The notes under the pieces are model-generated. The model was not told the origin of the DNA. It ran no database searches and was given only the letters and a program-made list of their open reading frames with translations. This document shows positions 960 through 46,559 of a stretch of 64,000 bases of DNA, one piece after another (position 1 is the stretch's first letter; each line of letters begins with the position of its first letter). The stretch is from positions 2,881,463 to 2,945,462 of the forward strand of contig NC_087382.1 in NCBI RefSeq assembly GCF_963675165.1, written 5' to 3'. Source of the stretch: Halichondria panicea (taxonomy: Eukaryota > Porifera > Demospongiae > Suberitida > Halichondriidae). The position numbers were made by a program, and so were the translations under genes.

Positions 960-2162
960 TCATAAGATAACTCTATAATTCCGACCTTCATTATTATCCC
1001 AAAACTCTCCTCCTGATACTCGATAGCATACGGCAAACTCTAAATAATGGGAGAGAGAAATATTGAAGGGGATTTGAAACTGAAATTGATCCAATTCTCC
1101 GCTACTCGACTTGTAACAAGCCTCGTTATTAGCGCTGATTTTCCAGCCATTTTGCGAATAGCGTACTAGCACTTGCTTGTCGTAGGCAAGATTACACACT
1201 CTGATAGTTCCTGTGACATAACCGTGTTCTGTGCAGGTGAACGATTGAACCTTGACCTTCGTCTGTACAGTATCGTCCCTTCTTAGACAATGCTCACACT
1301 TGAAACTTGCTGTACTGTAAGTGTTGGGCACGAGCTTGCAGCATAGCAGACATTGCGGTGTAAATTGTAGCAAATCGATTAAGCCTCTAGATGATGATAT
1401 AGCTGCCGAATTGAATTGACAGATTTCGTTAGCTTGTCCTGCTATGGATTTTAAAACGTCTTCTCTTTTGTGTCCATTATCGAAGGCTTTCTTGCAGAGC
1501 GTCCATAACTTGATGGCTTGCTGCACACACACCTTCACTACTCTGACTCTTTCTACCCGGTTCTCTGTTGATGTGTATAGCTCTCTCAGATATTGTGTTT
1601 CTTTGGTCTTTAGTTCAAACTTGTGCTTTAGTTCAGCTATCTTGCGTTGTGTGTCAAGAACAGTTTTCTCTTTTTGTGAGCAATCAATGTTCAGCTTGTC
1701 CACAACACACTGTATCTTTTGTACAGTAGCTTTCAAATTATCTCGAGAAGTATCAGTCCAGAAAATTGGAACCATTCCTTTTTCAAGGAGACTTAATTCG
1801 TTCTCCTTTCTAGTCAGCTTTTTCTTAGCCATAAATAGGGCATTTCTTGCCTTCATAAGTTGCCATTTAGTAGCCTGCAACTTCTTGTGCTGTGTATGTT
1901 GTATGGACTCTGAAATGGACTGTGAGATTTTAAGTTCTCTTTCTTTTTTCCCGAGAACTTTGACGTGATGCGATAAAAAGTGTCCTCGGTTCTTAATCGA
2001 TTCTTCCAATTCTGTCAGTTTCTCATACACTTGCTCTAACTCTGTACATAATTTAGCAGCTTGTGGCTTTAAACCAGTCACTATGGAGATAGCTGTATCT
2101 GTATTTCCCTCTTCCAGAGCAATTAGAGCATCTTGCAATCTTGTAGGCAATTTGTCAGCCAT
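960..2162 (-). CDS. CBM21-domain coiled-coil protein (PP1 glycogen-targeting-subunit-like C-terminus)
   Basis: Single open exon of 400 residues starting MADKLPTRLQDALIALEEGN. Residues about 30-215 are rich in K, E, Q and L in a heptad-like pattern, suggesting coiled coil. Residues about 280-310 hold a C-x2-C ... C-x2-C set (CLLCCKL, CEHCLRR) that could bind zinc. The last 90 residues fit the CBM21 fold: VRVCNLAYDKQVLVRYS, GWK, then FAVCYRVSGGEFWDNNEGRN with the invariant WDNN-x-G-x-NY core. CBM21 in animals belongs to protein phosphatase 1 glycogen-targeting subunits (PPP1R3 family), where it binds glycogen. An RVxF PP1-docking motif is not obvious, so a role in glycogen metabolism is inference. 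No intron is visible, unlike most neighbours, and the gene lies antisense just upstream of the CASD1-like exons, so it may be a retrocopy sitting in an intron of that gene. Confidence 0.8.
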   Translation of the reverse strand: MADKLPTRLQDALIALEEGNTDTAISIVTGLKPQAAKLCTELEQVYEKLTELEESIKNRGHFLSHHVKVLGKKERELKISQSISESIQHTQHKKLQATKWQLMKARNALFMAKKKLTRKENELSLLEKGMVPIFWTDTSRDNLKATVQKIQCVVDKLNIDCSQKEKTVLDTQRKIAELKHKFELKTKETQYLRELYTSTENRVERVRVVKVCVQQAIKLWTLCKKAFDNGHKREDVLKSIAGQANEICQFNSAAISSSRGLIDLLQFTPQCLLCCKLVPNTYSTASFKCEHCLRRDDTVQTKVKVQSFTCTEHGYVTGTIRVCNLAYDKQVLVRYSQNGWKISANNEACYKSSSGELDQFQFQIPFNISLSHYLEFAVCYRVSGGEFWDNNEGRNYRVIL

Positions 2163-2780
2163 TTTAAATGCTTATCAGTGTTCTTTGACTATTGCACAAG
2201 CTTTTGTATGGCCTGTTAACCACCTGTGGTTGATTAGATAGCACCTGATTATAGCAACTTAGCTCTTAGCATGTACGTCTGATCTAGCTAGCTGTTCTCT
2301 ATACTTTCAGTAGCGCTAACTACACTGTGTTCACGTCAAAAAGTGCTCAAAGTATTGCATGTTTTCTATCCGGGCTTTATATAGGGAATACAAAGTCATG
2401 CTTCAATGTGTACAGTGCAGGTGGTTTCTGGTTTTGTAAACAGGATGTGTGTGCTCAGAGTTGAACATGAGTGGTGCACTGTCCCAGACAATGGAAGGCT
2501 TGTACTTGGCTTGTAGCTCCCACAGTATTTACTGGGGGACTGCTACTAAAGGCTATATATTGGAGGGTTGTTTGCCCTGCTACTGTGTAGCTACACATAA
2601 TTATGGTGTCAGACATGTAGTATAAGTTGTCTAGTCAAAACAGTTATCATTGCAAGGTCTGTACACGGCTATATAGTTTTGTGCCTGCATGCTCATTTTC
2701 CCTATCCTGGTTTTGCCCTCAATCGTGTTGAATCAAGCATAACATGTACTCATGTACTCCCCCTTATCTCTCATCACCAG

Positions 2781-7923: not shown

Positions 7924-8133
7924 GTTTGTATGTATCGTCTAGACTAGAATTCCGTTTTTGGTAAAGATCATTAATCATTCACTGCAATATTGACATCTGG
8001 TTAACATCTCTTTACCTATTTTCATTAAAGATCAAGAGCAGCCTGGAGCTAGCTGGAGCAGGAGCAAGGTACGTATAATATGTATATAGATCTATGTACG
8101 TAGCTATGTCCCCTCAGCCCGCCCTCTGCAATC
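7924..8133. promoter_or_regulatory. Bidirectional promoter region, IgTIR / PNPO
   Basis: The start codons of two divergently transcribed genes are separated by 210 bp. On the plus side a 5'UTR intron is likely: donor gcaag|gtacgt near 8069 and acceptor ccctcag near 8118, just before the PNPO ATG. No TATA box is evident. Confidence 0.5.
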
Positions 8134-8805
8134 ATGGAAACCATGGAAACCACTGGTGCTGACGTGTCCCAACTCCGTACTGCCTACAATGTTGACACGT
8201 TCACCGAGGATCAGCTCACCTCACACACAGACCCATTCCAACAGTTCCATTCCTGGTTCCAAGAAGCACTGGAATCCATACCCGAACCGCAAGCAATGTG
8301 TATCTCCACGGCAACCAGGGATGGACGTCCGTCAAGTCGTATGGTCCTCATGAAAAAATACGACCAAGATGGATTCCGTTTCTATACCAATTATCTGAGC
8401 AGAAAAGGATGTGAACTAACGGACAATCCTAATGCTTGCATTCTGTTCTACTGGGAAAAGCTCCATCGACAAGTTCGAATTGAAGGCAAAGTGCAGCGTC
8501 TTTCAGAAGAAGAGTCTATCAGTTATTTCTCCACTAGACCAAGACCCAGTCAAGCCAGCGCATGTGCTAGTATGCAGAGCACCACTGTGACAAGTCGGAG
8601 AGAACTGGAGGAGAAGATGCAATCTATTCTAGAATTGTATCCCAAGGGAACTCCCATTCCAAAACCAGATTATTGGGGCGGCTACGTCCTGGTTCCAGAC
8701 ATGTTTGAGTTTTGGCACGGACAATCATCACGGTTACACGATCGTATTGTATTCACCAAGGACGAGCAAACTGGAATATGGGAACGAAAAAGACTATCTC
8801 CTTAA
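8134..8805 (+). CDS. PNPO: Pyridoxine/pyridoxamine 5'-phosphate oxidase
   Basis: Uninterrupted 223-residue frame. The enzyme oxidises pyridoxine- or pyridoxamine-phosphate to pyridoxal 5'-phosphate with FMN, the last step of vitamin B6 salvage. Visible family features in order: substrate entry segment FHSWFQEALE, FMN-binding RDGRPSSRMVLMKKYDQDGF and FYTNYLSRKG, CILFYWEKLHRQVRIEG, STRPRPSQASACAS, then WGGYVLVPDMFEFWHG and the active-site RLHDR, ending ERKRLSP like the usual ...RLAP terminus. Length is slightly below the human enzyme and no mitochondrial presequence is evident. The upstream 5'UTR probably contains one intron. All key residues appear intact, so a working enzyme is expected. Confidence 0.95.
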   Translation: METMETTGADVSQLRTAYNVDTFTEDQLTSHTDPFQQFHSWFQEALESIPEPQAMCISTATRDGRPSSRMVLMKKYDQDGFRFYTNYLSRKGCELTDNPNACILFYWEKLHRQVRIEGKVQRLSEEESISYFSTRPRPSQASACASMQSTTVTSRRELEEKMQSILELYPKGTPIPKPDYWGGYVLVPDMFEFWHGQSSRLHDRIVFTKDEQTGIWERKRLSP

Positions 8806-16505: not shown

Positions 16506-18857
16506 TTATGATAATACATTTAGTCCATGTGGAATAATTGTTCTAAGTGTAGCTATCCAGTAGTGTTCTAAAGCTTGGAGTTCTGTGAAGGACGTTGTTG
16601 CGTCAATACACTGTACTTTCAGGTTTCTGACAGAGTGATCGGTAAAGTTGAAGTGGTTGCTTATATACGTTCTTACTTTGTTGAAAATATTGCTACGATG
16701 ATGATTGATTCTAGTTCGAAGCGTTTGAGTGGTGTAACCCACATACTGTTTCTTGCAATGTGAGCATGTAATTAGATATATGAGATATCTTGAATTGCAG
16801 GAAAATTGGTGTCTGATTGGATACGTTTTTTCTGATTTCGATGATCTGAAAAATCTATTACATACTAGGTGTTGACATGTTGCACAGCTCGGTTTCATAC
16901 ACTTACTTATTCGAGTGTGTTGTGTGAGAGTGGGAACGCTTCTTGTAATTGTGTGTTGGTGGACTTGATCAAAGGTTATTTCAGTTCTGAGCGTTTGTTC
17001 TTCGTTTAAACTGATTTTGGCCCTAACGAGTTCTTTACCGAGATTTTGGTGTTTCAGATTGATTATTCTGGGACTGGGTAATAGTAAGCCTTTGTAGTGC
17101 TGTAGTGTGACACTTTTTAGTAATTGGAAATTTGGAGGCGAGAGGCACTTGAAAATGGGTGGTCTTACTCTGGCAGGAGGTTTTTTCATTTTCCGAAGTA
17201 ACTGAGGTCTTCTCTCATATGACACGGAATTGATGGTTTTGTCAATGAGGGTTTGGGGATAGTCTCGTTTTTTAAGGCGTATGCTAAGGAGCTGAGTCAT
17301 GGTTTGAAACTCCTGGATGGTGGTGTTTGTGCGCACAAGTCTGGTACATTCTCCGGTAATGATGGATTTGAAGATGTGTTTCGGATGGTTTGATGTATAA
17401 TGTAGGTACTGGTAGAGATTTTGTTGTTTTTGGAAGGTTTTTGTGTCTAGTTTTCGAGATTTGTGGAAGTGGGGACCTTTGTAAATTGTCATATCTAGAA
17501 ACGAGACTTGTTGAGATGAGTAGGAGTATTTGTAACTTAATTTTTGGTGGGATATATTGAGTTCGGATAGGAAGCTGATTAGCGAGTTTTCATCATGCTG
17601 CCACACTATAAAAATGTCATCTATGTATCTTTTAATCAGGAGAGGTTTAGCTGGTTGTTTTTCTAAAAATCTTCTGATGATTACCGACATGAATATGTTA
17701 GCGATGGTGGGTGAGAACGGGGCTCCCATTGCTGTACCTTGTATTTGTTGGAATGTAACTGGTCCAAACTCGAAATAATTGTGATTAACGCATATTTGTA
17801 GAAGTTGGATGATTAGATTTGGGTCTAGCAGCAACGTGTACCTATGACTTAACATTTCGGTGTATATTATCTGCAGACATTCCTCTTGAGGAATGGAGGG
17901 ATACAATGAGTCGACGTCAATTGCTACTAATAGCGCATTGTCGGGAATTTGTAAGTCTTCTAGAATTAGTGACAAACAAGCGGAATTTTGTAGGTAATCT
18001 TCGTACGTTTAAGCTAGGGGTTGAAGCACATGATCTAAGAGCTTACTAGCTGGCGTTAGTGGAGAATTACAGTTTGCAACTATGGGTCTGACTGGTGGCA
18101 GTTTTTTGAATTGTTTATGAATTTTCGGAATGCCGTAAAATTGTGGAATTTGGAAAATGTCTTTATTGGGGAGAACGAATCGTTTTAGCCGCTTATCGGT
18201 ACTAGTGAGTGTGGTATGGTATTTTGACAGAACTTCTTGGAGTTGGTTGGTGATTTTGGTGGTGGGATACTCGGCGGTTCTTTTATATACCTTATCGTCT
18301 AGTAAGATTAGGAGGCATTGTTGGACGTAGTCTGTGGTGTCCATTATAACTACGCCTAAGTTCTTATCTGCTGGCTTAATGGTGACTCGATTTTTTTGTT
18401 TTTTGAATTTTTGTAGTGCTAAAGATTCTGCGAGTGTGACATTTGTTTTGGGCTTGAAGATTTCGTGTAACTGGTCATTGATATTATCTTTTGTGACGGA
18501 AATGTATTGTTCGACATTTCTGTATCCACTATTGTATGTATCATTAAAAGAAGAGTATGTGGTTGTTGGTAGGAATCGCATTGGTCTATGTACTTTTTCT
18601 GTCGTTGTGGGTATACCACTTTTTACTGGTTTCGGCGTGCGATAATATATAGAGTTAGTGTATATTCTTCTAAGTGACTTTGAGTATTCGTTAAACTCTC
18701 GTAACAGTTGTAATTTGGATTCCGTACTACATAAGTTTTTGGTGAGTGCGAAGCTTAGGCCTTTATTTAGTAATTGTGATTCGGCAGTGGTGAGGGTGAG
18801 TGAGCTCAGATTGTGGACGCACCTGGTGGGTTGTGTTTCGGTTGGGGGCCTTCCCAT
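16506..18857 (-). pseudogene. Penelope-like RT and GIY-YIG polyprotein, one in-frame stop
   Basis: Two adjacent frames in the same phase (18857-18009 and 17975-16506) are separated by a single TAA at 18011-18009; the 11 codons between that stop and 17975 are open. The upstream part contains the Penelope-type motifs KPADKNLGVVIMD, FYGIPKIHK and SPLTPASKLLDHVL. The downstream part has GTAMGAPFSPTIANIFM and the catalytic RYIDDIFIVW. The C-terminal region shows a Cys cluster (CMKPSCATCQ) and a GIY-YIG-like nuclease segment (LIYLITC...YVGYTTQTLRTRINHH). The usual length of this protein fits the sum of the parts. The stop falls in the linker before the RT palm, so this copy is probably inactive unless the stop is read through or is a sequencing error. 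Confidence 0.85.
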
Positions 18858-33278: not shown

Positions 33279-35074
33279 TTAGTAGCTCTTTTTTTTTTCC
33301 GCTAGTGGTGGTGGTTTTCTATGCTCTGTTGATAATTTGTCACCATCAATTTTTTTTACTGCTCGCGGACCATTCATTAATTGAGATTTGACTCCTCTAG
33401 GTTTTGGAGAAATAGGAGGTGGTTTTCGGAGATCTGTGTAGTCACTTTTGTCCATTCCGTCAGCGTCAATGGTGTGATAATGAATCTCTATAGCGTTGTC
33501 TTGAAGATGAGCAAAGTCCGTATTATTAGCTAGTGATGTACGTAGGGGGTGGTCTAGGGGGGGAATCTCCTCAGCACCAATGTCAACGTAACCATCCGAG
33601 TTTTCCAATACCTGAGAGGGGGTGGTAGATTCGTTGCCATGGATATCAATGGTTGTCTGGAATTGTAAAGGTTCGTTTATATCGTGAATAAGGTCAATTT
33701 CAGTTGATGGCTTTCCTGTAAATAAAAAACAACAACTTATGCATGTAGCGTTAAATAGAGTATTAAACGGCCATAACTCTAGTTCCGTTGGTCCAATAAC
33801 GTTGAGATGTTTTGAAAGAGGCCTTAGATGATATGTTAAAATCCAAAAATCTATTTTGGATTTTGGACCTGTTACAGCCCATGCCAAAAATAGGAATTAT
33901 GGCCTGTTTTAAAATTGAGATTTGAGCATACAATCTGAGCGGGCTCTTTCTAAGATCGTTGAACAGAACTCTAGTTACAGAGCAACTCTAGTGCTTTCAA
34001 AAGAAGTAGTCCTATATTTCTTACCTGAAGGCAATAAGCTAAGCTATTAGCAATTATATAGTGGGTGGAGTCCTAACAATGAAAATGTACCGCCATTATA
34101 ATCATTGGACGACTTACTCTTTGATCTCAGAACGCAGCAGGATATACAGATGAGCAAGGAGAGAAGGGCAACAAAGAATGAGGAGATGGCTACGCCCGCT
34201 ATCACCTGCAGGTAAATATTAGATGTATCAATAAAACGTGTACGGAGATTGTGCATGCATAACGCCCACACACACGCCCACACATCCTATTCACCTGCTC
34301 ACTCAAGGGGGAGGGGCCCACAATGGTAGGTGTCTCGATGTTGCCCACAGGCATAAGAATAGATCCATTGCCAGCAAACATTGATACCTGCTGAGACAAG
34401 GACAGCCCTGTACAGGGGGGGTAATCAGCATACGCATCAGGGGGTAGCACTTTAAACACTGCACTGGATTCATAGGTCGAATTAGCCTCTCCGTAGACTC
34501 CGACCTGACACCAATAATCACTCGGACCTTCTGCTCCTATTAAATCTTTTAGTGAAAGTGTTGAGATTAAATAATCTTCGTTGCTTGAGATGGTTTCATT
34601 TATTGGCATTTCAATATTACCGGAGTTGTTAGACCTTCTAAACCAACGAATAGTGTGATTGGATAGACCCCCTTGCTGGTAGAGAGCACAGATTAGTTGT
34701 TTAGGTCCAACAATGTACGGGTTACAAGAATACTGGCTCACTGGTTGGACAGTGTAGAGTAGGGGACCTTTAGTGTGCATGTGTGTGTGTGTGGGAGAAG
34801 TATTACAATGCATGAGCAATATTACGACTGTATGCAGAGATATATACGATATGTACCAATGAAAAAAATTATATACATCATTAAAAGTCATAAGCTGTGG
34901 ACACTCACTATTATCAGGAATACTTGATGGACTCTCGCTATTATCAGGAGTACTTGATGGACTCTTGCCATCATTAGGAGTACTTGATCCACTCCTACTA
35001 TTATGTTGAGCAGAAGTTACAGAGAAAAGTAGAACCAGTAGAACCGCAAAGGAAAGTGAAAAGTTGAGATCCAT
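33279..35074 (-). CDS. Ig-domain receptor with ITAM-type tail, copy A (tail truncated)
   Basis: Four exons, 387 residues: 34909-35074, 34295-34767, 34118-34205, 33279-33715. Exon 1 is a signal peptide (MDLNFSLSFAVLLVLLFSVTSAQ) followed by a Ser/Pro/Asp repeat encoded by three roughly 30-bp units absent from the other copies. Exon 2 is one V-like Ig domain: Cys in LICALYQQ, Trp in IRWFRRS, DYWCQVG on strand F, and several N-glycosylation sites. Exon 3 is the membrane helix (FFVALLSLLICISCCVL). Exon 4 is the cytoplasmic tail with YVDIG, YHTI-x9-YTDL (ITAM consensus spacing) and RKPPPISPKP. The frame shifts in a run of ten T (33289-33298) and stops 15 bp or so later, so the YQEL pair and C-terminal VYAN of the other copies are lost. 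The exon 2 acceptor differs from that of copies B-D. Confidence 0.8.
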
Positions 35075-36710
35075 ATCTTGTGCTGTGTTCAACTGGTCTA
35101 TGCTTTCAGCTATAGTTACAATTAACTGTGTTACTTTGTGTATATACGTTGCTTATACTGTTACAGTATTATGCAATTCTAAAATTTCCCATTCTCCACA
35201 CCCTAACATTCTGCACACCCAGTCAGCATATGGAGTCTACATGCAGTACAGTGTCAGCCAAGCAAAAACATATATAATACTGCATAACCTTTGTTTTGGT
35301 GCAATACCATACACACACAGATCGAGGGGGTGGGGGGTATGAATACTTGGTAGGTACATGCGAACAAGGAAATTTAGGGCGGAACATGGGGCTCAAATGG
35401 TAAACTTATAAGGTGTTTGATAACACAAATATTGGCTGTTCAAACAGCTCAACCAGGGCTTAAAATAGCTGCTGACAAGAAACTGAAGGAAGTTCAGCTC
35501 CGTCTAGTTGTATAGCACTTGTATATAGCTATGCATTCAAGGTTTACTTTAGTGTGAGCTGGCCAATGACTTTTCACACGCTTAAAATATTCTGTCACCT
35601 ACTTGGAGCTAAATTTCCTATTCTCAACCTCATTAATTAATACAACATGGAGCCCAAATTTTCACTCGCTTGGCAAAATCCTAAAAGAAACCCTGGTTCC
35701 ATTGGTAATTGTATTTCCTTGCTCCTCATATTTCACTATAATTATATTGTGCATGCAGAAGGGTTATTAGCATAATTATACACTAGCTGATAAGACATCT
35801 TCATTACTGCTATATCGGGTAATTTTCGTGGGGAAAAATATTCGTGGTTTTCGTGGTTGAAAGTCTGAACACGAATAGTTTACCCACGAATGAAGAAACC
35901 TTGCCTACCTTTACCTGCAGTGCAAGCAGCAACCAAAAAAATATTACCAAGAAATGTCTCAATATTGCTGAACCACGAATATTTTGTCCCTCGAAAATGA
36001 CCCGCTATATATACGGTATCTAGCTAGATTAACTGTATAGGTTATTATAACTCATGCAATAGGGATGTCAGCTAATACAACTCACGCCGAGGGCAAGAGT
36101 TGTATTAGCTGTACAGCACAAGAGTATGACGGACTTATTGCTGATTGTGCATGGAATAATTAATTTTCAAGGATCATTACCTATCAATTGAAAATTGCAG
36201 GATTCTACCCTACTGCATTAGGATTTGCCACAGTTTTCCAGTTTCTTATAAAAACAATGCAAGCTAATAGGTGGTGGGTGGTGCTTTAGGTTGAATCGGT
36301 CTGCATTCTGGGTAATCAATATCATCCAGGTACGTATATTGATCATACCCTGAATGATATTGATTACCTCCAGGGACGCAACAGTACTATAGTATAGTGC
36401 AACGCTTTGATGTCTGACCACACTTGAGCAATATAAAGGTAATAATTTGGTATATTTAGACTGAAAATGATAGCTTATAAGACTATATATCTCAGCTGCT
36501 AAATTTAATGCAATAAGACTAAGGACTTATAAAGCAAGCCAATTAATTTGAGGGTTGATTCCCATAATTGAGGGCAATTAACTTCAAAGGCCTTTGTTTG
36601 CATGCACAACCATACAACCATAGCAATACTCTGCCAAGAAATGAATGGATACGGCTGATAAACTGCTAAACTCAACTTACAATACCAGTCAACAGTAAAG
36701 ATAAAACAAT
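35075..36710. repeat. Intergenic between receptor copies A and B
   Basis: Contains a 'TATAGCGGGTA'-type foldback at about 35815-36015, whose ends are cgggtaattttcg and cgaaaatgacccgctatata. A hairpin lies at 36319-36368 (ggtaatcaatatcat inverted as atgatattgattacc). No gene seen. Confidence 0.6.
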
Positions 36711-38434
36711 TCAGTTAGCATACACACTCTCAGAGCTAGGGCTAGCAGATAGCTCTGCTGGACATGTGTACAGTACTTCCATATAATCCTTAGTGCTTGA
36801 ACTTAGCTCCTGATACTCTTGTTCATGAGGTTGCTGAGATTGAAGCAGCGATTCATCCTTGACATTAGGAGCTCCATTTTTGTCTTTATTCTTTGGTAGT
36901 GGTAGCGGTTTTCTACGTTCTTCCGATGTTTCGCCACCACCAATTCCTTTCACTGCAAATGCTTGCTGACAATTCACTGATTGAGATGTGACTTCTCCAG
37001 GTTTGGGAGAAATAGGAGGTAGTTTTCGGAGATCTGTGTAGTCACTTTCATCCAATCCGTCAGTATCAATGGTGTGATAAATCTCTGTAGCGTTGTCTTG
37101 AAGATGAGCAGAGTCCATACTATTAGCTAGTGATGTACGTAGGGGGTGGTCTAAGGGGGAAATTCCCTCAGCACTAACGTCGACGTAATCATCCGAGTTT
37201 TCCATTTCCTGAGGGGAGGTGGTAGGTTCATTGCCATGAATATCGATGACTGTCAGCGATTGCAAAGATTTGTTTGTAAGGTTAATTTTAGTTGATAGCT
37301 TTCCTGGAAAGGAAAAACAACAACTTTTGCATGTAGCGTTAAACAGAGCATATTTGAACGGCCATAACTTTAGTTTCGTTGATCTAATAAAGTTGATTTT
37401 GAAAGCTTAGCCTTCCAGATGAAGTGTTAAAAATCAAAAGTCTATGTTTATTTTGGGCCTGTTATTGACAAAAGACTATGCATAATATTGCTGAGCTATT
37501 AGCAAGTTTAAAAATCCTAAAATGAACTTTCATTATTGATGACTTACTCTTTGATTTCAGGACGCAGCAGAATATACAGATGAGCAGGAGGAGAAGGGCA
37601 ACAAAGAATGAGGTGACGGCTGCACCCACTATCAAGACCAGTCGGAAATCCTGTAGAGAAAATGTATGTAGCAAAATAAAAGAGTGTATTGCCCACACAA
37701 ACACATACGCACACCGTACGTACCTGCTCACTCGAGGGGGAGGGGCCCACAGTGGTGGGTGTGTCGGTACTGCCCATAGTGGTAGATGTGCCGATGATGC
37801 CCAAAGGTGTAAGAATGGATCCATTGCCAACAAACATTGATACCTGCTGAGACAAGAACAGTCCTGTGCAGGGAGGGTAACCAGCGTACGCATCAGGGGG
37901 TAGCACTCTAAACACTGCACTGGGTTTATAGGTCGAATTAGCCTCTCCGTAGACTCCAGCCTGACACCAATAATCACTCGGACCTTCCGCTTCTATTGGT
38001 TGAAGTATTGAGATCAAATAATCTTCGTTGCTTGGATTAGTTTCGTTTATTATCATCTCTGTTTCAATATTACCGAAACTTCTAATCCAGCGGATGGTAT
38101 GATTGGATAGACCCCCTTGCTGGTAGAGAGCACAGACTAGTTGTATAGATCCATTACTGTGCGGGTTGCAAGAATACTGGCTCACTGGTTGGACTGTGTA
38201 GAGTAGGGGACCCTTAGTGGCTGTGTCTGTGTGGGTGCATGGAGGGGGGGGGAGGTATTTACATACGATACCTGGTCCAGTACAGAAGAGAATTTATGTG
38301 TAGCATAACTATACACACACGTAGAAAAGTTATAAGCTGTACATACATAGGCACTCACTATTGCCTTGAGCAGAAGCTATGGGGACAAGTAGAACCAGTA
38401 GAACAGCAAAGCAAAGTGAGAAGTTGAGATCCAT
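36711..38434 (-). CDS. Ig-domain receptor with ITAM-type tail, copy B (intact)
   Basis: The most complete copy: exons 38359-38434, 37724-38220, 37548-37650, 36711-37303 close in frame to 422 residues. Signal peptide MDLNFSLCFAVLLVLLVPIA; Ig domain with LVCALYQQ, IRWIRS and DYWCQAG; a Pro/Thr-rich stalk; membrane helix FFVALLLLLICIFCCVL. The 200-residue tail carries YVDV, then YHTI-x9-YTDL, then PPISPKP, then YQEL-x6-YMEV, then a C-terminal VYAN. In known immune receptors YxxI/L-x6-12-YxxI/L pairs recruit Syk-family kinases, PxxP segments bind SH3 domains, and pYxN binds Grb2; use of those partners here is inference. Exon phases are 1, 0, 1, identical in all copies. A recognition receptor that activates signalling is the likeliest role; an adhesion role is also possible. 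Confidence 0.85.
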
Positions 38435-38807
38435 ATCTTTTGTGCAATTGATCAATTCTTTCAGCTATAGCTACAATAATTGTGTTACTTTGCTGTGCTG
38501 TCACAGTTTTATGCAGCTCTAAAGCAACCATGCATTCCAGTATAATTACTGGGAGACCACAAGTACATGCAAGTCCCAGCCAAAGCGTAACTATTATATC
38601 ATGCTTATCAAAACGATGCTACATATAATTATAGCTTTTGTTTTGGTGCAATGCCATATACACACACAGAATGCGAATAAGGATAAATTTTAAAAGGTGG
38701 AACAAGGTGCACATAAAACTGATAAATTTATAAAATCACTGCTGTCTGGAAGCGTACTACATGCATAGATACTATAAATTAGTGTCTATGCTACCTGCAT
38801 ATGATAG

Positions 38808-39032
38808 TATCAGGTATATAAGGAAGACATGACATCATGCAGGAAGTATTCATGCACTCCTGGTATCAGGTATATAAGGAAGACATGACATCATGCAGGA
38901 AGTATTCATGCACTCTTGGTATCAGGTATATAAGGAAGACATGACATCATGCAGGAAGTATTCATGCACTCCTGGTATCAGGTATATAAGGAAGACATGA
39001 CATCATGCAGGAAGTATTCATGCACTCCTGGT
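38808..39032. repeat. Minisatellite, 4 x 56 bp
   Basis: Four near-identical units starting tatcaggtatataaggaag and ending gcactcctgg (one unit has a single change). No spacers, so not a CRISPR array. Lies between receptor copies B and C. Confidence 0.92.
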
Positions 39033-39715
39033 AATACGTCTGCATAAATGAGGCCTAGTACAATATATTACTGCTTGGTAGTGTTTAAATATACCTCTTG
39101 TATCGATGTCATTAAGAGCCGCTCACATTGTAATCAATTAACTTTCCTCTTTGGGTTGCCTTGGTGACACCCGACAATCCGCCACAATTGTCCAATAGGA
39201 TTGTCCCAGTTTGCTGGTCAATTCACAGTTCCACCAGCACCATTGAAATATTCTCTTCTGAGCAAACTTGGTTCCAAAGTTGTCGAAATCTTTCCCTTAT
39301 CACACCTGATAGTGGTTTACACAAAACCTTTGTTATACATTCTCCGCATTCAGTTGCATTGTGTATAGGCAAGAAATTAAATTCAGTGTTCAAATCAATC
39401 AGACTGAAAATGATATATCTTTAAGACTATCTCTCGACTGTTAAATTGAATGCACACTAAAAGCGAGACATAATTAAGGGTTGACCCCATAATTGATGGC
39501 AAAGGCCCTTGTTCGCACGCACAACCATGCAACCATGGAAACCGGGTTCCTGGAACAGATAATAGAGTGCCTGCCTAATACAGATTGTTGCTGGTTTCAA
39601 TCTACCTTTTGCACTTGGAAAATTGTTAAGTGTATAATTATTATGTCTCACATGACACGTATACAGTTACAAACTTACAATACCAAAAATATGAGTCAAC
39701 AGGAGATAAAACAAT
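39033..39715. other. 3' flank of receptor copy C
   Basis: Segments such as gtgcctgcctaatacagatt (39570) recur downstream of copy D (42070), showing that the unit of duplication includes 3' flanking DNA. No gene seen. Confidence 0.5.
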
Positions 39716-41329
39716 TCAGTTAGCATATACAATGCTCTCAGAGCTAGCAGATACCTCTGCTGGACATGTGTACATATCCACACGATTCTTCGTGCTTGAG
39801 CTGAGCTCCTGATACTCTTGTTCACAAGGTTGGTGAGATTGAAGCAGCGATTCATCTTTGAGAGTAGCTCTATTTTTGTCTTCATTTTTCGGTGGTGGTA
39901 GCGGTTTTCTACATTGTTTAGATGTCTTGCCATCACCAATTCTTGTTACTGCAAATTCTCGCTGACAATTCACTGATTGAGGTTTGACTCTTCTAGGTTT
40001 GGGAGAAATAGGAGGTGGTTTTCGGAGATTTGTGTAGTCATTGGTGTCCATTCCGTCAGCATCAATGGCGTGATAATAAATCTCTATAGCGTTGTCTTGA
40101 AGATGAGCAGAGTCCATACCATTAGCTAGTGATGTACGTAGGGGATGGTCTAGGGGGGGAATCTCCTCAGCTCCAACGTCAACGTAACCAGCCGAGTTCT
40201 CCATTTCCTGAGGGGGGGTAGTGGGTTCGTTGCCATGGATATCGATGGTTGTCAGCGATTGCAAGGGTTCGTTTGTACTGTGAATAATGTCAATTTCAGT
40301 CGATAGCTTTCCTGGAAATAAATGCACATGTAGCGTTAAATAGAGCATCATATGTCACCTTAAGCCTGAGGGGAATATGTACGCTGAGCTATTTAGCAAT
40401 TAAGTATAATAGAGAGTGGTGAAATCCTAAAACAATGAATAATTATAATACTGCTACTGCCACTAATTTAACGACTCACTCTTTGATCTCAGGACGCAGC
40501 AGAATATACAGATGAGCAAGGAGAGAAGGGCAACAAAGAATGAGGAGATGACTACACCCGCTATCAACACCCCTGAGATATTCTGCAGGTAAATATTACA
40601 TGTAGCAATAAAACGAGATTGTGCATGCCTAACGCCCACACATACATGCATCCGCCCACATACCACACATCCTGTTTACCTGCGAGGGGGAGGGGCCCAC
40701 AGTGGTGGGTGTGTCATCACCTACAGGTGGAAGAATGGATCCATTGCCAGCAAACATGGTTACCTGTTGAGACAAGAACAGTCCTGTGCAGGGAGGGTAA
40801 CCAATATACGCATCAGGGGGTAGCACTTTAAACACTGCACTGGGTTCATAGGTCGAATTATCCTCTCCGAAAGTTCCAGCCTGACACCAATAATCCGCTT
40901 CTATTGAATTATTTAGATAAAATATTGATACTAAATATTCTTCATTCCTTGCATTAGCTTCGTTTACAATAATTATTACTGCAGTTGTTAGAGCTTCTAA
41001 ACCAGCGGATGGTGTGATTGGTCAGACCTCCGTGCTGGTAGAGAGCACAGACTAGTTGTATAGATCCATTACTGTGCGGGTTGCAAGAATACTGGCTCAC
41101 TGGTTGGACTGTGTAGAGTAGGGGACCTTTAGTGTCTGTGTGTGCATGGGGGGGGGGGGAGTATTTATAGTATAGAAGATAATTTATGTGTAGCATAACT
41201 ATACATATACTGGTACACGTAAAAAAGTCATAATCTGCATGCATGTCAATTACCATTATCTTGAGCAGAAGCTATGGAGACAAGTAGAACCAGTAGAACT
41301 GCAAAGCAAAGTGAGAAGTTGAGATCCAT
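39716..41329 (-). pseudogene. Ig-domain receptor with ITAM-type tail, copy C (Ig exon frameshifted)
   Basis: Exons recognisable at 41254-41329 (signal peptide), 40680-41135 (Ig), 40480-40582 (TM) and 39716-40311 (tail). The Ig exon is open to about 40954 (IRWFRSSNNCSNNYCKRS, then stop) and resumes in another frame from about 40985 (IVNEANARNEEYLVS...DYWCQAG...VFKVLPPDAY). The frame break falls between the Trp and the second Cys of the Ig fold, so the receptor cannot be made as read. The SEQ residues before the exon 2 donor are also missing. The tail is open and keeps YHAI-x9-YTNL, PPISPKP and YQEL, but the second tyrosine after YQEL is replaced (STKNRVDM). Could be a recent pseudogene or a sequencing error in one place. 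Confidence 0.75.
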
Positions 41330-42196
41330 ATCTTGTGCTGTGTGCAACTGGTCTATTCTTTCAGATATAGCTGCAATAACTGTTTGTGTAGTTGCTTGTG
41401 CTGACGTTTTTATGCTAACTCCCCATTCCCCCTACACCCCAAAATCCCCCATAACTATTCCAGTATGAGACAAAAGTCTGCATACCATATACATGCATGT
41501 ATTGACAAGAACCATGCATGCATGCATTGCATTCCAATATATGACAGGGAGACCACAAGTACAAGTTCCAGCTAAAGCGTAATATTAGAAGTTCCAGCTA
41601 AAGCGTAATATTATATCATATCTTAAAATTAGTGATGCTATATATACATGCATACAGCTTAATTTACTACATATGCATGCTATTTTGGTGCAATGCCACA
41701 CACGCACGCACGCACGCCCACCCGCCCGCCCGCCCGTTAACGTTCAGGCAAATACACTAGCACTTGTAGTGATTCGTGCACGCATGTCGGACCTCCTCTG
41801 ATCTGACAGTGGTTAATTTACACAAAACCTTTGTTAACTGAAAACACATTCTCCACATTCGGTCGCATTGTGTACAGGCAAGAAATTCATATAAATAAAT
41901 TATCTTTAAGACCATCTCTCAGCTGTTAAATAGAATGTACGCTAAGGACTTACCAGCAAACCTGACTCCATAATTGGGCACTTAACTTCAAAGGCCCTTG
42001 TTTGCACGCACAACCATGCATGCAACCATAGCAACACAGGAAATGAATGGAAACCAGATTCCTGGAACAGATCATGAGTGCCTGCCTAATACAGATTTGT
42101 TACTTGGTTTACATCTACCCTTGCACTTTGAAATTAATTATTATGTCATACATGACAGTTACAAACTTACGATACCAAAAAGAGTCAACAGTTAAT
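41330..42196. other. Intergenic between receptor copies C and D
   Basis: Holds short direct repeats (agttccagctaaagcgtaatatta twice at 41565-41612), a CGCA/CGCC-rich run at 41700-41735 and 3' flank sequence shared with copy C. No gene seen. Confidence 0.5.
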
Positions 42197-44199
42197 TCAG
42201 TTAGCATACACAATGCTGTCAGAGCTGGCAGATAGCTCTGCTGGACATGTGTACATTTCCGTATAATCCTTCGTGTTTAAACTGAGCTCCTGATAAGAGT
42301 GTTTAGAAGGTTGCTCAATTCTTTGAGATTGAAGCAGTGATTCATCCTTGAGCGTAGGAGCTCTATTTTCGTCTTTGTTCTTCGGTGGTGGTAGCGGTTT
42401 TTTATATTGTTTAGATGTTTCACCATCACCAATTCTTGTTACTGCAAATGGTCGCTGACAATTCAGTGATTGAGATTTGACTCCTCTAGGTTTGGGAGAA
42501 ATATGGGGTGGTTTTCGGCGATCTGTGTATTCACTTTTGTCCATTCCGTCAGCATCAATGGCGCGATAATGAATCTCTATAGTGTTGTCTTGAGGATGAG
42601 CAAGGTCTGTATTATTAGCTAGTGAGGGGTGGTCTAGGGGGGAAATTCCCTCGGCACCAACGTCAACGTAATCTTCCAAGTTTTCCATTTCTTGAGGGAG
42701 GGTGGGTTCATTGCCATGGATATGGATGGCTGTCAGCGATTGCAAGGGTTCGTTGCCATGGATACCGATGACTGTCAGCGATGGAATGGGTTCGTTTATA
42801 TTGTTAATTTCAGATGATAGCTTTCCTATAAATGAAAAACAATGTATAAGATGTAGCGTTAAATAGAGCATCTTTGAACGGGCATAACTTTAGTTTCGTT
42901 GGTCCAATAACGTTGATTTTCTGATTTTTTAAAAGCTTAGAGAGAGGCCTTTCAGATGATGCATTAAAATCACTGGAGTCTATTTTTGGGTTCGTTTTTT
43001 ACAAAATACCATGGGCTATATATAGACTATAGTCTTTTTATTATGTTAGCCATAAATACTGCAATCTGATTGGATGTGTTCTATCCAACTTAGAAAATCA
43101 TGTACATGTACTTACTTAGAAATTCATGTAAACCACTTAGAAAATCATGTAGCAAAGATTAGAAGAACATTCAAATCTGATTGGCTAGAGAGACTCATGG
43201 TTGCTATGATCTAAAATGCTTAGACACTGTTTAGGAAGTTTCCACATGATTTAGAAGCCTAAAGGGCTAGTTGTAGTATCCCGAACGTAGTGAGGGTTCT
43301 ACTAGAAACTATAGAAACTTCCTAAACAGTGTCTATATAATTATTATAGGGAATTGGCCTATTCTGTAATACACATTTGAAATTTTGAGCACCATCTGAA
43401 CGGGCTTCTTCTAAGTTTTCAGGATCGTTGAATTTGGACAAATGACAGAACTCTAGTTAGAGAGCCCGACTATTAGCTAAGCTGTTTTAAATGTAAACTG
43501 CCATTATGACTCACTCTTTGATCTCAGAACACAGCAGGATATACAGATAAGCAAGGAGAGAAGGGCAACAAAGAATGAGGAGATGACTATACCCACTATC
43601 AAGACCAGTGTGAGATCCTGCATGTAGGGAAATAATTACACTAGCAATAATAGCAATTGTGCATGTCTAACGCCCACACATACATGCACCCGCCCACACA
43701 CACATACACCCACACATCCTGTTTACCTGCTCACTCGAGGGGGAGGTTTCGATGATGCCCACAGGCATAAGAAGCGATCCATTGACAGCAAACATTGAGA
43801 GCTGCTGAGACATGGAGAGTTGCGTACAGGGGGGGTAACCAATATACACATCAGGGGGTAGCACTTTAAACACTGCACTGGGTTCATAGGTCGAATTAGC
43901 CTCTCCGTAGACTCCGACCTGACACCAATAATCACTCGGACCTTCTTTTTCTATTACATCTTTTAGTGGAAGTGTTGAGATTAAATATTCTTTATTGCTT
44001 GAGATGGTTTCATTTATCGGCACTGTTTCAATATTAAATATACCGGAGTTGTTAGACCTTCTAAACCAGCGGATGGTGTGATTGGATAGACCCCCTTGCT
44101 GGTAGAGAGCACAGACTAGTTGTTTAGGTCCAACAATGTACGGGTTGCAAGAATACTGGCTCATTGGTTGGACTGTGTAGAGTAGGGGACCTTTAGTGG
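42197..44199 (-). CDS. Ig-domain receptor with ITAM-type tail, copy D (no signal-peptide exon)
   Basis: Exons 43727-44199 (Ig), 43515-43617 (TM) and 42197-42825 (tail) are open and join in the same phases as the other copies. The Ig exon has LVCALYQQ, IRWFRRS and DYWCQVG. The tail has an extra internal duplication (GNEPLQSLTAIHIHGNEP), YVDVG, YRAI-x9-YTDR (the last Leu changed to Arg, so the ITAM is broken), PPHISPKP, YQEL-x6-YTEM and C-terminal VYAN. The MDLNFSL exon found in copies A-C is absent upstream. Instead a promoter/leader cassette shared with the PARP exon region lies at 44290-44730, with ATGGCGAGAGGC... and a gtaatg donor whose phase (0) does not fit exon 2 (phase 1). The gene is probably disabled or secreted differently. 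Confidence 0.65.
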
Positions 44200-45085: not shown

Positions 45086-46559
45086 CTATAGATAAGCTTC
45101 TAGAGAGTTCGTTATTCTAATGAACTCAGCAATTGCATATGAATATGCTTGTCCATTTCCTGATACCACATTACTAAAGATGTCCCCAAAACGACAGCGA
45201 GAGAGGAAATATTGCTCCCTTTTCATAATTAGATCCTGTCGATCCTTGAGTGGATCGCAACCAAAAAGTCCAAACTCTCTTAGCTGACCACCTTGAGAAC
45301 GGTATGCATCTGCAGCTTCATCAGTACCCGGTACTTCCCCATCTGGAATGGGTATAGTTTCATAACGCTGCACCTGCAAATGATTGGGTACTCCTCGACC
45401 TGTATCACATATTATAATAGCGCATGTGTCATCAATAATAATGTCATTACATTTACCTGGTATAGAATGATGATTCCAAGCTGCAACAAACAATGATAAT
45501 CCATGATAAGCAACATTGCACGTAACAAACGAAACACAAAATTTTGTAGTTTCATCACTCATGTTAATCAGATTAGTAGCTTCCATTGATATCAAGTGTC
45601 GCTTTAGGGGGTAGTTAATACGAGAATTTACTTCAACCCAAATGCGTTCAACAGTGTGGTTCTGTAGAGAGAAAAGTTAATGCATGTAAGCAATATCAGT
45701 ACCCTTACTTCTGTTGAAGGAGATTGAACGTAAGGAAGAATATCCCGAGGGCCAACACGACAACGAAGTGCTTCTTGTACATACAAAAGAAGATAAAATT
45801 CTCTTCCATGGTCGACTCGAATTTGCTTCCAAAGACCATACGTTTTAGTAGATGACCTGATATGGAAATTATACGTGTTACTGATGTAACTATTATTCAA
45901 TGAGTTGAACAATACCTCAAAATACTGTCGTATATAGCCAAATTGTTCTTGACTGGCATTGTACAGTAAGCAATTATCTTGCCTGAATATCCATCCCTTG
46001 CAACTATGTGGGTAGCACCAAACATTGTGATCTTTTCATTTTGGTCAATATGAAGTTTATGCCCAAAGTGGAGAGCCGAGTATTGCAGTGGATTAGTACG
46101 GTCTAAGGTGTCATTCCGCCGCTGATCATATTGCAAAGGGGCCACTCTCTGTAAGGACTCTGAAACTCTTTTCTCAGATACCTTAATACCTTTAGACTCA
46201 AGCACACCCTTTAACATTCTCCGGCCATACACATGTCCAACCTGCAAGTCATAATTAATTTAGAAATGTTTTTTGTGGTACTTAGCTAATTACGCACATG
46301 GACTGTATTCTCCGGTGCTACGGTAATATTCTTAGTATTAAGCCCTATACTACGTTTAGCTTACTTCAGTAACAGCACATTCGACTACAGCATCTACTTG
46401 AGCAGAATCTGGTTTATGAATGCCATTTTCAGAGCAGAATCGCCGAACACTTCTTGCAGAGAAGCCTCTTATTCCTGGAAAGCGGGTCTTGAGTGTATTA
46501 CTTATATCTTCGTGGGTCATACCACTTGTAACCATTTCAAACACTTCATCCACATCCAT
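45086..46559 (-). CDS. DDE integrase-core transposase-like protein, 414 aa
   Basis: Four exons close in frame: 46365-46559, 45916-46241, 45709-45856, 45086-45661. The N-terminus (MDVDEVFEMVTSGMTHEDIS) with GFSARSVRRFCSENGI is a helix-turn-helix. The second exon has GHVYGRRMLKGVLESKGI and the start of an RNase-H-like integrase fold with the first Asp in LHIDQNEKITMFGATH; the second Asp is in RVDHGREFYLLLYVQE and the Glu in HTVERIWVEVNSRINYPLK. This integrase-core family is common as multicopy genes in fish and marine invertebrates. The triad seems present, so it may be active or domesticated. It faces the RING gene head-to-head over about 120 bp; the two may be the genes of one transposon. Confidence 0.82.

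What the first reader, a model, noticed from the sequence alone, without database searches (positions are those of the whole stretch)
33279..44199. Tandem array of four Ig receptors with canonical ITAM spacing in the tail
Seen: four same-strand genes with identical exon phases (1,0,1), one V-like Ig domain, one membrane helix and tails that contain YxxI-x9-YxxL in copies A, B and C (YHTI/YHAI then YTDL/YTNL), directly followed by a KxxPxxP-type proline motif, then YQEL-x6-YMEV or YTEM and a terminal VYAN. Known: YxxI/L-x6-12-YxxI/L is the ITAM consensus that binds tandem SH2 domains of Syk/ZAP-70; pYxN is a Grb2 SH2 ligand. Inference: a lineage-specific family of activating immune or allorecognition receptors in an animal outside Bilateria. 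Rapid copy decay and divergence in the Ig exons fit a birth-and-death family.
Basis: partly seen in the sequence, partly recalled or inferred. Interest (0 to 1): 0.88.

Follow-up and report, generated by a model that had tools for sequence, protein, structure and literature searches.

The report
Sponge Ig receptors with ITAM-like tails
A genome that is likely a sponge's (it carries silicatein-like genes) holds two small arrays of related genes for predicted cell-surface proteins, each with a predicted antibody-like outer domain and an inner tail whose conserved tyrosines would likely recruit a Syk-type kinase, a kind of kinase that vertebrate immune receptors use and that this genome also encodes; no function has been tested.

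Summary
The array is real: four minus-strand copies, exon phases 1-0-1 (signal, ectodomain, membrane, tail). Only copy B could be complete, and it needs a different splice acceptor from its paralogues; A has a truncated tail, C a broken ectodomain frame, D no first exon found within 2.8 kb. Genome searches find eight tails: these four and four in an inverted array about 100 kb away. Silicatein-like genes point to a siliceous sponge. YxxI-x9-YxxL stands in 6 of 8 tails and in 3 of 4 further copies from public contigs; x9 lies outside the strict x6-8 ITAM. Six of seven tail tyrosine columns are invariant. SYK-, Shark- and SHP2-type exons are present. Pfam does not see an Ig domain; a weak model and a profile match to a V-set array favour one. 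Ectodomain and tail trees conflict, suggesting exon exchange. Most likely Syk-coupled activating receptors; SHP2-type inhibition is not excluded (ITIM consensus fits the first tyrosine in 7 of 8). Expression, phosphorylation and ligand are untested.

The parts
34909..35074 (-). Copy A exon 1 (predicted signal peptide MDLNFSL... plus Ser/Pro-rich repeat), ends phase 1
34295..34767 (-). Copy A ectodomain (Ig-like) exon, phase 1 in, phase 0 out
34118..34205 (-). Copy A membrane exon, ends phase 1
33279..33715 (-). Copy A tail exon: YVDI, YHTI-x9-YTDL, RKPPPISPKP; stops early (KKKSY), C-terminal tyrosines lost
38359..38434 (-). Copy B exon 1 (predicted signal peptide)
37724..38220 (-). Copy B ectodomain (Ig-like) exon, using in-frame acceptor ACACAG|CC
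   Evidence: model of this exon
37548..37650 (-). Copy B membrane exon
36711..37303 (-). Copy B tail exon: YVDV, YHTI-x9-YTDL, RKLPPISPKP, YQEL-x6-YMEV, YTCP, VYAN
41254..41329 (-). Copy C exon 1 (predicted signal peptide)
40680..41126 (-). Copy C ectodomain exon, reading frame broken (stops in frame; 447 bases against 464-497 in the others)
   Evidence: the script printed 40681; the GT donor puts the end at 40680
40480..40582 (-). Copy C membrane exon
39716..40311 (-). Copy C tail exon: YVDV, YHAI-x9-YTNL, RKPPPISPKP, YQEL, YTCP, VYAN
43727..44190 (-). Copy D ectodomain (Ig-like) exon; no exon 1 found in 2.8 kb upstream
43515..43617 (-). Copy D membrane exon
42197..42825 (-). Copy D tail exon: YVDV, YRAI-x9-YTDR (second half lost), YQEL-x6-YTEM, YTCP, VYAN

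Best explanation
In a genome that is likely a sponge's, a family of eight related genes in two inverted arrays encodes proteins predicted to cross the membrane once, with one divergent, predicted Ig-like outer domain, and their tails likely work as activating (ITAM-type) signalling modules. Proposed steps, all inferred: a ligand clusters the receptor; a Src-family kinase (Src-like SH2 exons on C2, read by eye) phosphorylates the conserved tyrosines; the doubly phosphorylated YxxI-x9-YxxL binds the tandem SH2 domains of the genome's SYK-type kinase, or of its Shark-type kinase; a KxxPxxP motif beside the pair (5 of 8 tails: A, B, C, E, G) binds SH3 adaptors; the other tyrosines (YVDV, YQ[EA]L, YTCP, VYAN) dock further SH2 proteins. 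Duplication, decay and exchange of ectodomain and tail exons between copies keep the repertoire changing. Shown: gene structure, copy number found, motif and tyrosine conservation, dN/dS below 1, tree conflict, presence of the kinase exons. The ligand (self or microbe) is unknown.
Confidence: 0.5

Rival explanations
1. Inhibitory or dual receptors: the first tyrosine is an ITIM (IxYxxI) that would recruit the SHP2-type phosphatase, with the ITAM look arising because a second YxxL follows.
For: [ILVS]xYxx[ILV] at the first tyrosine in 7 of 8 tails (not B), also SDYTDL in A and B; SHP2-type SH2 exon in the genome, PDB match 4e-58. D and E, which lack the full ITAM pair at this place, keep the ITIM-like site.
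Against: The second tyrosine is kept in 8 of 8 at the same distance, and in only 2 of 8 copies (A, B) does it fit the ITIM consensus. Shuffled tails hold 0.18-0.41 ITIM matches on average, so the ITIM match is less telling than the pair. SHP2 prefers two ITIM-type sites (recalled).
Confidence: 0.22
2. General tyrosine docking tails (adaptor-like, as in adhesion receptors), not an immune-type ITAM: each tyrosine would bind a separate single-SH2 protein.
For: Six invariant tyrosine columns of different type (YVDV, YxxI, YTDL, YQxL, YTCP, VYAN) and proline motifs; x9 spacing.
Against: Fixed distance and +3 I/L at both tyrosines of the pair in 6 of 8 own copies and 3 of 4 further copies.
Confidence: 0.18
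3. The window array is largely a decaying remnant; the working genes are in the second array.
For: A, C and D damaged, B with a changed acceptor; in the second array E, G and H spliced to open frames with only E shortened, and I's exons are open.
Against: B's whole frame and A's first three exons are open; dN never exceeds dS in 21 ectodomain pairs or 28 whole-tail pairs, window copies included (C's ectodomain left out). A run of A bases at A's break, seen by eye, may hide an assembly error.
Confidence: 0.1

Closest known systems
Hydractinia Alr family (cnidarian allorecognition complex)
   Same: Clustered IgSF membrane receptors in a non-bilaterian; ITAM and ITIM motifs are reported on candidate allorecognition genes there (PMC12065747, passages); 41 genes with V-set and I-set domains (PMC11999971, passages)
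   Different: Here one short Ig-like domain and eight genes; no Alr sequence was compared; allorecognition role untested
[quoted passage not shown]
   Same: Ig-like domains on sponge cell-surface proteins, reported to rise after grafting (PMC2248247, passages)
   Different: Here no kinase domain but tyrosine motifs in the tail; sequences not compared
Oyster CgIgIT2
   Same: IgSF receptor with a tail ITAM, activates ERK (PMC11999971, passages)
   Different: Five Ig domains; a mollusc
Drosophila Draper-I / Src42A / Shark axis
   Same: ITAM-bearing receptor with a Shark kinase, and Corkscrew phosphatase acting through an ITIM isoform (PMC4503800, passages); Shark- and SHP2-type exons are in this genome
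   Different: Draper's ectodomain is not Ig (recalled); here an Ig-like domain and a SYK-type kinase as well
Vertebrate ITAM receptors (CD3, FcR, Ig-alpha/beta)
   Same: Paired YxxI/L in the tail of Ig receptors, Syk family present (recalled)
   Different: Spacing x9 instead of x6-8 (recalled); proline motif directly after the pair; further tyrosine sites

Membership tests
ITAM-bearing receptors | YxxI/L-x6-12-YxxI/L in the cytoplasmic tail | tested here: met
   6 of 8 own tails at x9, and E at x6 near the C terminus; D has none
ITAM-bearing receptors | strict spacing x6-8 with acidic residue at -3 | tested here: not met
   only H of 8 tails (by its C-terminal pair) passes the strict pattern
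ITAM-bearing receptors | tandem-SH2 Syk-family kinase in the same genome | tested here: met
   SYK-type exons at L055, Shark-type at L052; read exon by exon, not spliced
ITAM-bearing receptors | phosphorylated pair binds Syk and activates | not testable with these tools
   needs biochemistry
Ig superfamily (V-set) | match to a curated Ig profile | tested here: not met
   0 of 8 ectodomain sequences (7 own, P0002) match an Ig model at E 1; invariant C29, W44, Y83-W84-C85 read
Ig superfamily (V-set) | Ig fold | tested here: inconclusive
Type I membrane receptors | signal peptide and one membrane helix | tested here: inconclusive
   two hydrophobic regions in each of the 5 copies scanned (A, B, E, G, H), by hydropathy only; no signal-peptide predictor was run
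ITIM receptors | [ILVS]xYxx[ILV] in tail and SHP-type phosphatase in genome | tested here: met
   first tyrosine in 7 of 8 tails; SHP2-type SH2 exon
Hydractinia Alr family | sequence relation to Alr proteins | not tested
   no Alr sequence was compared; the primary paper was not held under the identifier tried

The most novel reading that the evidence does not exclude
Sponges have their own germline-encoded immune-type receptor locus: a copy-number-variable, exon-swapping set of single-Ig receptors with a lengthened ITAM wired to a true SYK kinase, so that the Src-ITAM-Syk recognition circuit was already coupled to Ig receptors before sponges and other animals parted, or was assembled a second time in sponges.
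Probability: 0.3. Interest if true: 0.87.

Novelty: new variant of a known kind. Interest (0 to 1): 0.6.

Why it matters
The receptors behind self/non-self recognition in invertebrates are unsettled, and the candidate proteins of sponges, cnidarians and ascidians are described as not conserved between them (PMC12065747, passages). An Ig receptor family with an ITAM-type tail in a likely sponge that also encodes SYK-, Shark- and SHP2-type proteins would make the age of the Ig-ITAM-Syk circuit directly testable with phosphopeptides and transcripts. The listings (25 of 34 papers; 3 of 3; 14 of 14; 20 of 32), and the passages read from some of them, showed no paper on sponge Ig receptors with ITAM tails; the library holds open-licence papers only.

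Tried and rejected
Ig by Pfam: no Ig model in 3 window ectodomains or in the 8 sequences. PDB sequence search with the ectodomain profile: best a nanobody, E 0.026. Not supported: 'Ig exons diverge fastest'. Within the domain proper (first three columns and the 60-column stalk, which also has gaps, left out) gaps fall only between WFR and EGPSDYWC: 14 of 40 columns against 0 of 71; but dN/dS there is 0.65 (0.35-1.23), not shown to exceed 1. Positive selection on whole tails: 0 of 28 pairs with dN above dS; in sub-stretches 0, 12 and 1 of 28. The membrane exon is too short to judge (interval 0.40-1.99; dN above dS in 11 of 28). Taxon by pyridoxine oxidase: 120 of 5699 hits listed, only sponge named Geodia barretti at 56%, species not identified; the silicatein motif then served as marker. 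Paper search for a 131 Mb sponge genome: none. The C10-array frames read (L001, L004-L006, L008) hold no ITAM; their tail exons were not sought.
Full report
What is there. The window lies at C6:2881463-2945462 of a 131 Mb assembly of 39 contigs. On its minus strand four related genes occupy 42197-44190 (D), 39716-41329 (C), 36711-38434 (B) and 33279-35074 (A). Spliced from the sequence, a copy has four exons: a signal exon beginning MDLNFSL, an ectodomain exon, a membrane exon and a tail exon, joined in phases 1, 0, 1 with GT-AG borders. B is open from start to VYAN if the acceptor ACACAG|CC is used; the site used by the paralogues has changed in B. A has an early stop in the tail. C's ectodomain exon is out of frame. 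D has no recognisable exon 1 in 2.8 kb.

Family size. A genome search with B's tail finds eight tails at E <= 0.001 (13 candidates, all scored): the four here and four at C6:3023255-3042471 on the other strand. The ectodomain search finds the same eight genes plus a remnant at C6:3025362-3025519. In the second array G, H and I read through to VYAN or VYSN; E stops just before it. Exon 1 of I was read (MDINFSL) but not spliced. The protein searches give no named relative: 4 hits with copy H and 11 with the tail profile; they reach only relatives sharing short exact words. Of the 11, seven are copies here or near variants of them (P0004, P0125, P0126, P0127, P0131, P0132, P0133) and four are distinct copies (P0128, P0129, P0130, P0134). 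P0002 is a distinct ectodomain. Whether this is copy-number variation or a close species I cannot tell.

The host. A pattern for the silicatein active site (motif recalled) gives three matches within 11 kb on C2 and none in the reversed control. Reading frames of two of the three were compared with the PDB; both match silicatein alpha best (2.2e-11 and 1.4e-11), ahead of cathepsins at 1.6e-9 and 4e-8 and weaker. I take the host as a siliceous sponge; the species is unknown.

The tail. YxxI-x9-YxxL is present in A, B, C, G, H and I; D has R for L, E has V for I. The two tyrosines are equally far apart in all eight. P0128, P0129 and P0130 keep the pair, P0134 does not. Shuffled tails carry a 6-12 pair in 1.3-4.2% of cases. 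Of seven columns whose commonest residue is tyrosine (columns with at least six rows), six never vary, against 73 of 196 columns in all, P = 0.011. Against: the pair-plus-proline stretch shows dN/dS 0.94 (its dS is low), so the stretch as a whole is not shown to be more constrained than the rest. The ITIM consensus fits the first tyrosine in 7 of 8. A second pair with x6 spacing stands near the C terminus of E and H.

Evolution. Pooled dN/dS is 0.43 (0.31-0.59) for seven ectodomains and 0.64 (0.48-0.83) for eight tails, A's only up to its stop; the intervals overlap. Trees of the two exons, for the seven copies with an open ectodomain, reject each other (AU 0.037 for ectodomain data on the tail tree, 0.002 for tail data on the ectodomain tree), though many branches have low support, in the tail tree 28-90%. 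I read this as exchange or conversion of exons between copies.

Partners. SYK-type exons: C-SH2 to SYK 2e-39, N-SH2 second half and linker to SYK 3e-18, N-SH2 first half to Pfam SH2; a kinase glycine-loop stretch beside them was read by eye only. Shark-type exons: SH2 plus ankyrin, SH2, tyrosine kinase. An SHP2-type exon matches PTPN11 at 4e-58. Src-, PLC-gamma-, NCK- and CSK-like SH2 exons were named by eye only. A SYK-family sequence from the sponge Amphimedon is known (PMC9601881, passages).

Verdict. Activating Syk-coupled receptors are the best single explanation (0.5), with inhibition through SHP2 and general docking as live rivals. What it works like and what it is stay apart: it meets the loose ITAM definition and fails the strict one; it likely has an Ig domain, which curated profiles do not see. 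Function, ligand and expression are untested.

Noticed in passing
G000:C10:5074580-5160437 (L001, L004-L006, L008): Nine V-set matches on one strand over 86 kb; five frames read show a V-set domain and, by eye, a stalk and a hydrophobic stretch: a second Ig receptor array; tails not examined.
   Followed up: partly
window 38815-39033: About four head-to-tail copies of a roughly 56-base unit between copies B and C, seen by eye.
   Followed up: no
window 16509-18008 (-): Reading frame with reverse transcriptase and GIY-YIG domains, Penelope-like by that combination (recalled).
   Followed up: no
window 45089-45676 (-): Integrase core (rva_4, 1.2e-8) just upstream of copy D, whose exon 1 was not found; an insertion may have cut D off.
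   Followed up: no
P0002: A distinct ectodomain copy on a 2274-base public contig: copy-number or species variation.
   Followed up: partly
window 8104-8802 (+) and 963-2171 (-): Single-frame pyridoxamine phosphate oxidase gene and a CBM21 (starch-binding module) reading frame.
   Followed up: partly
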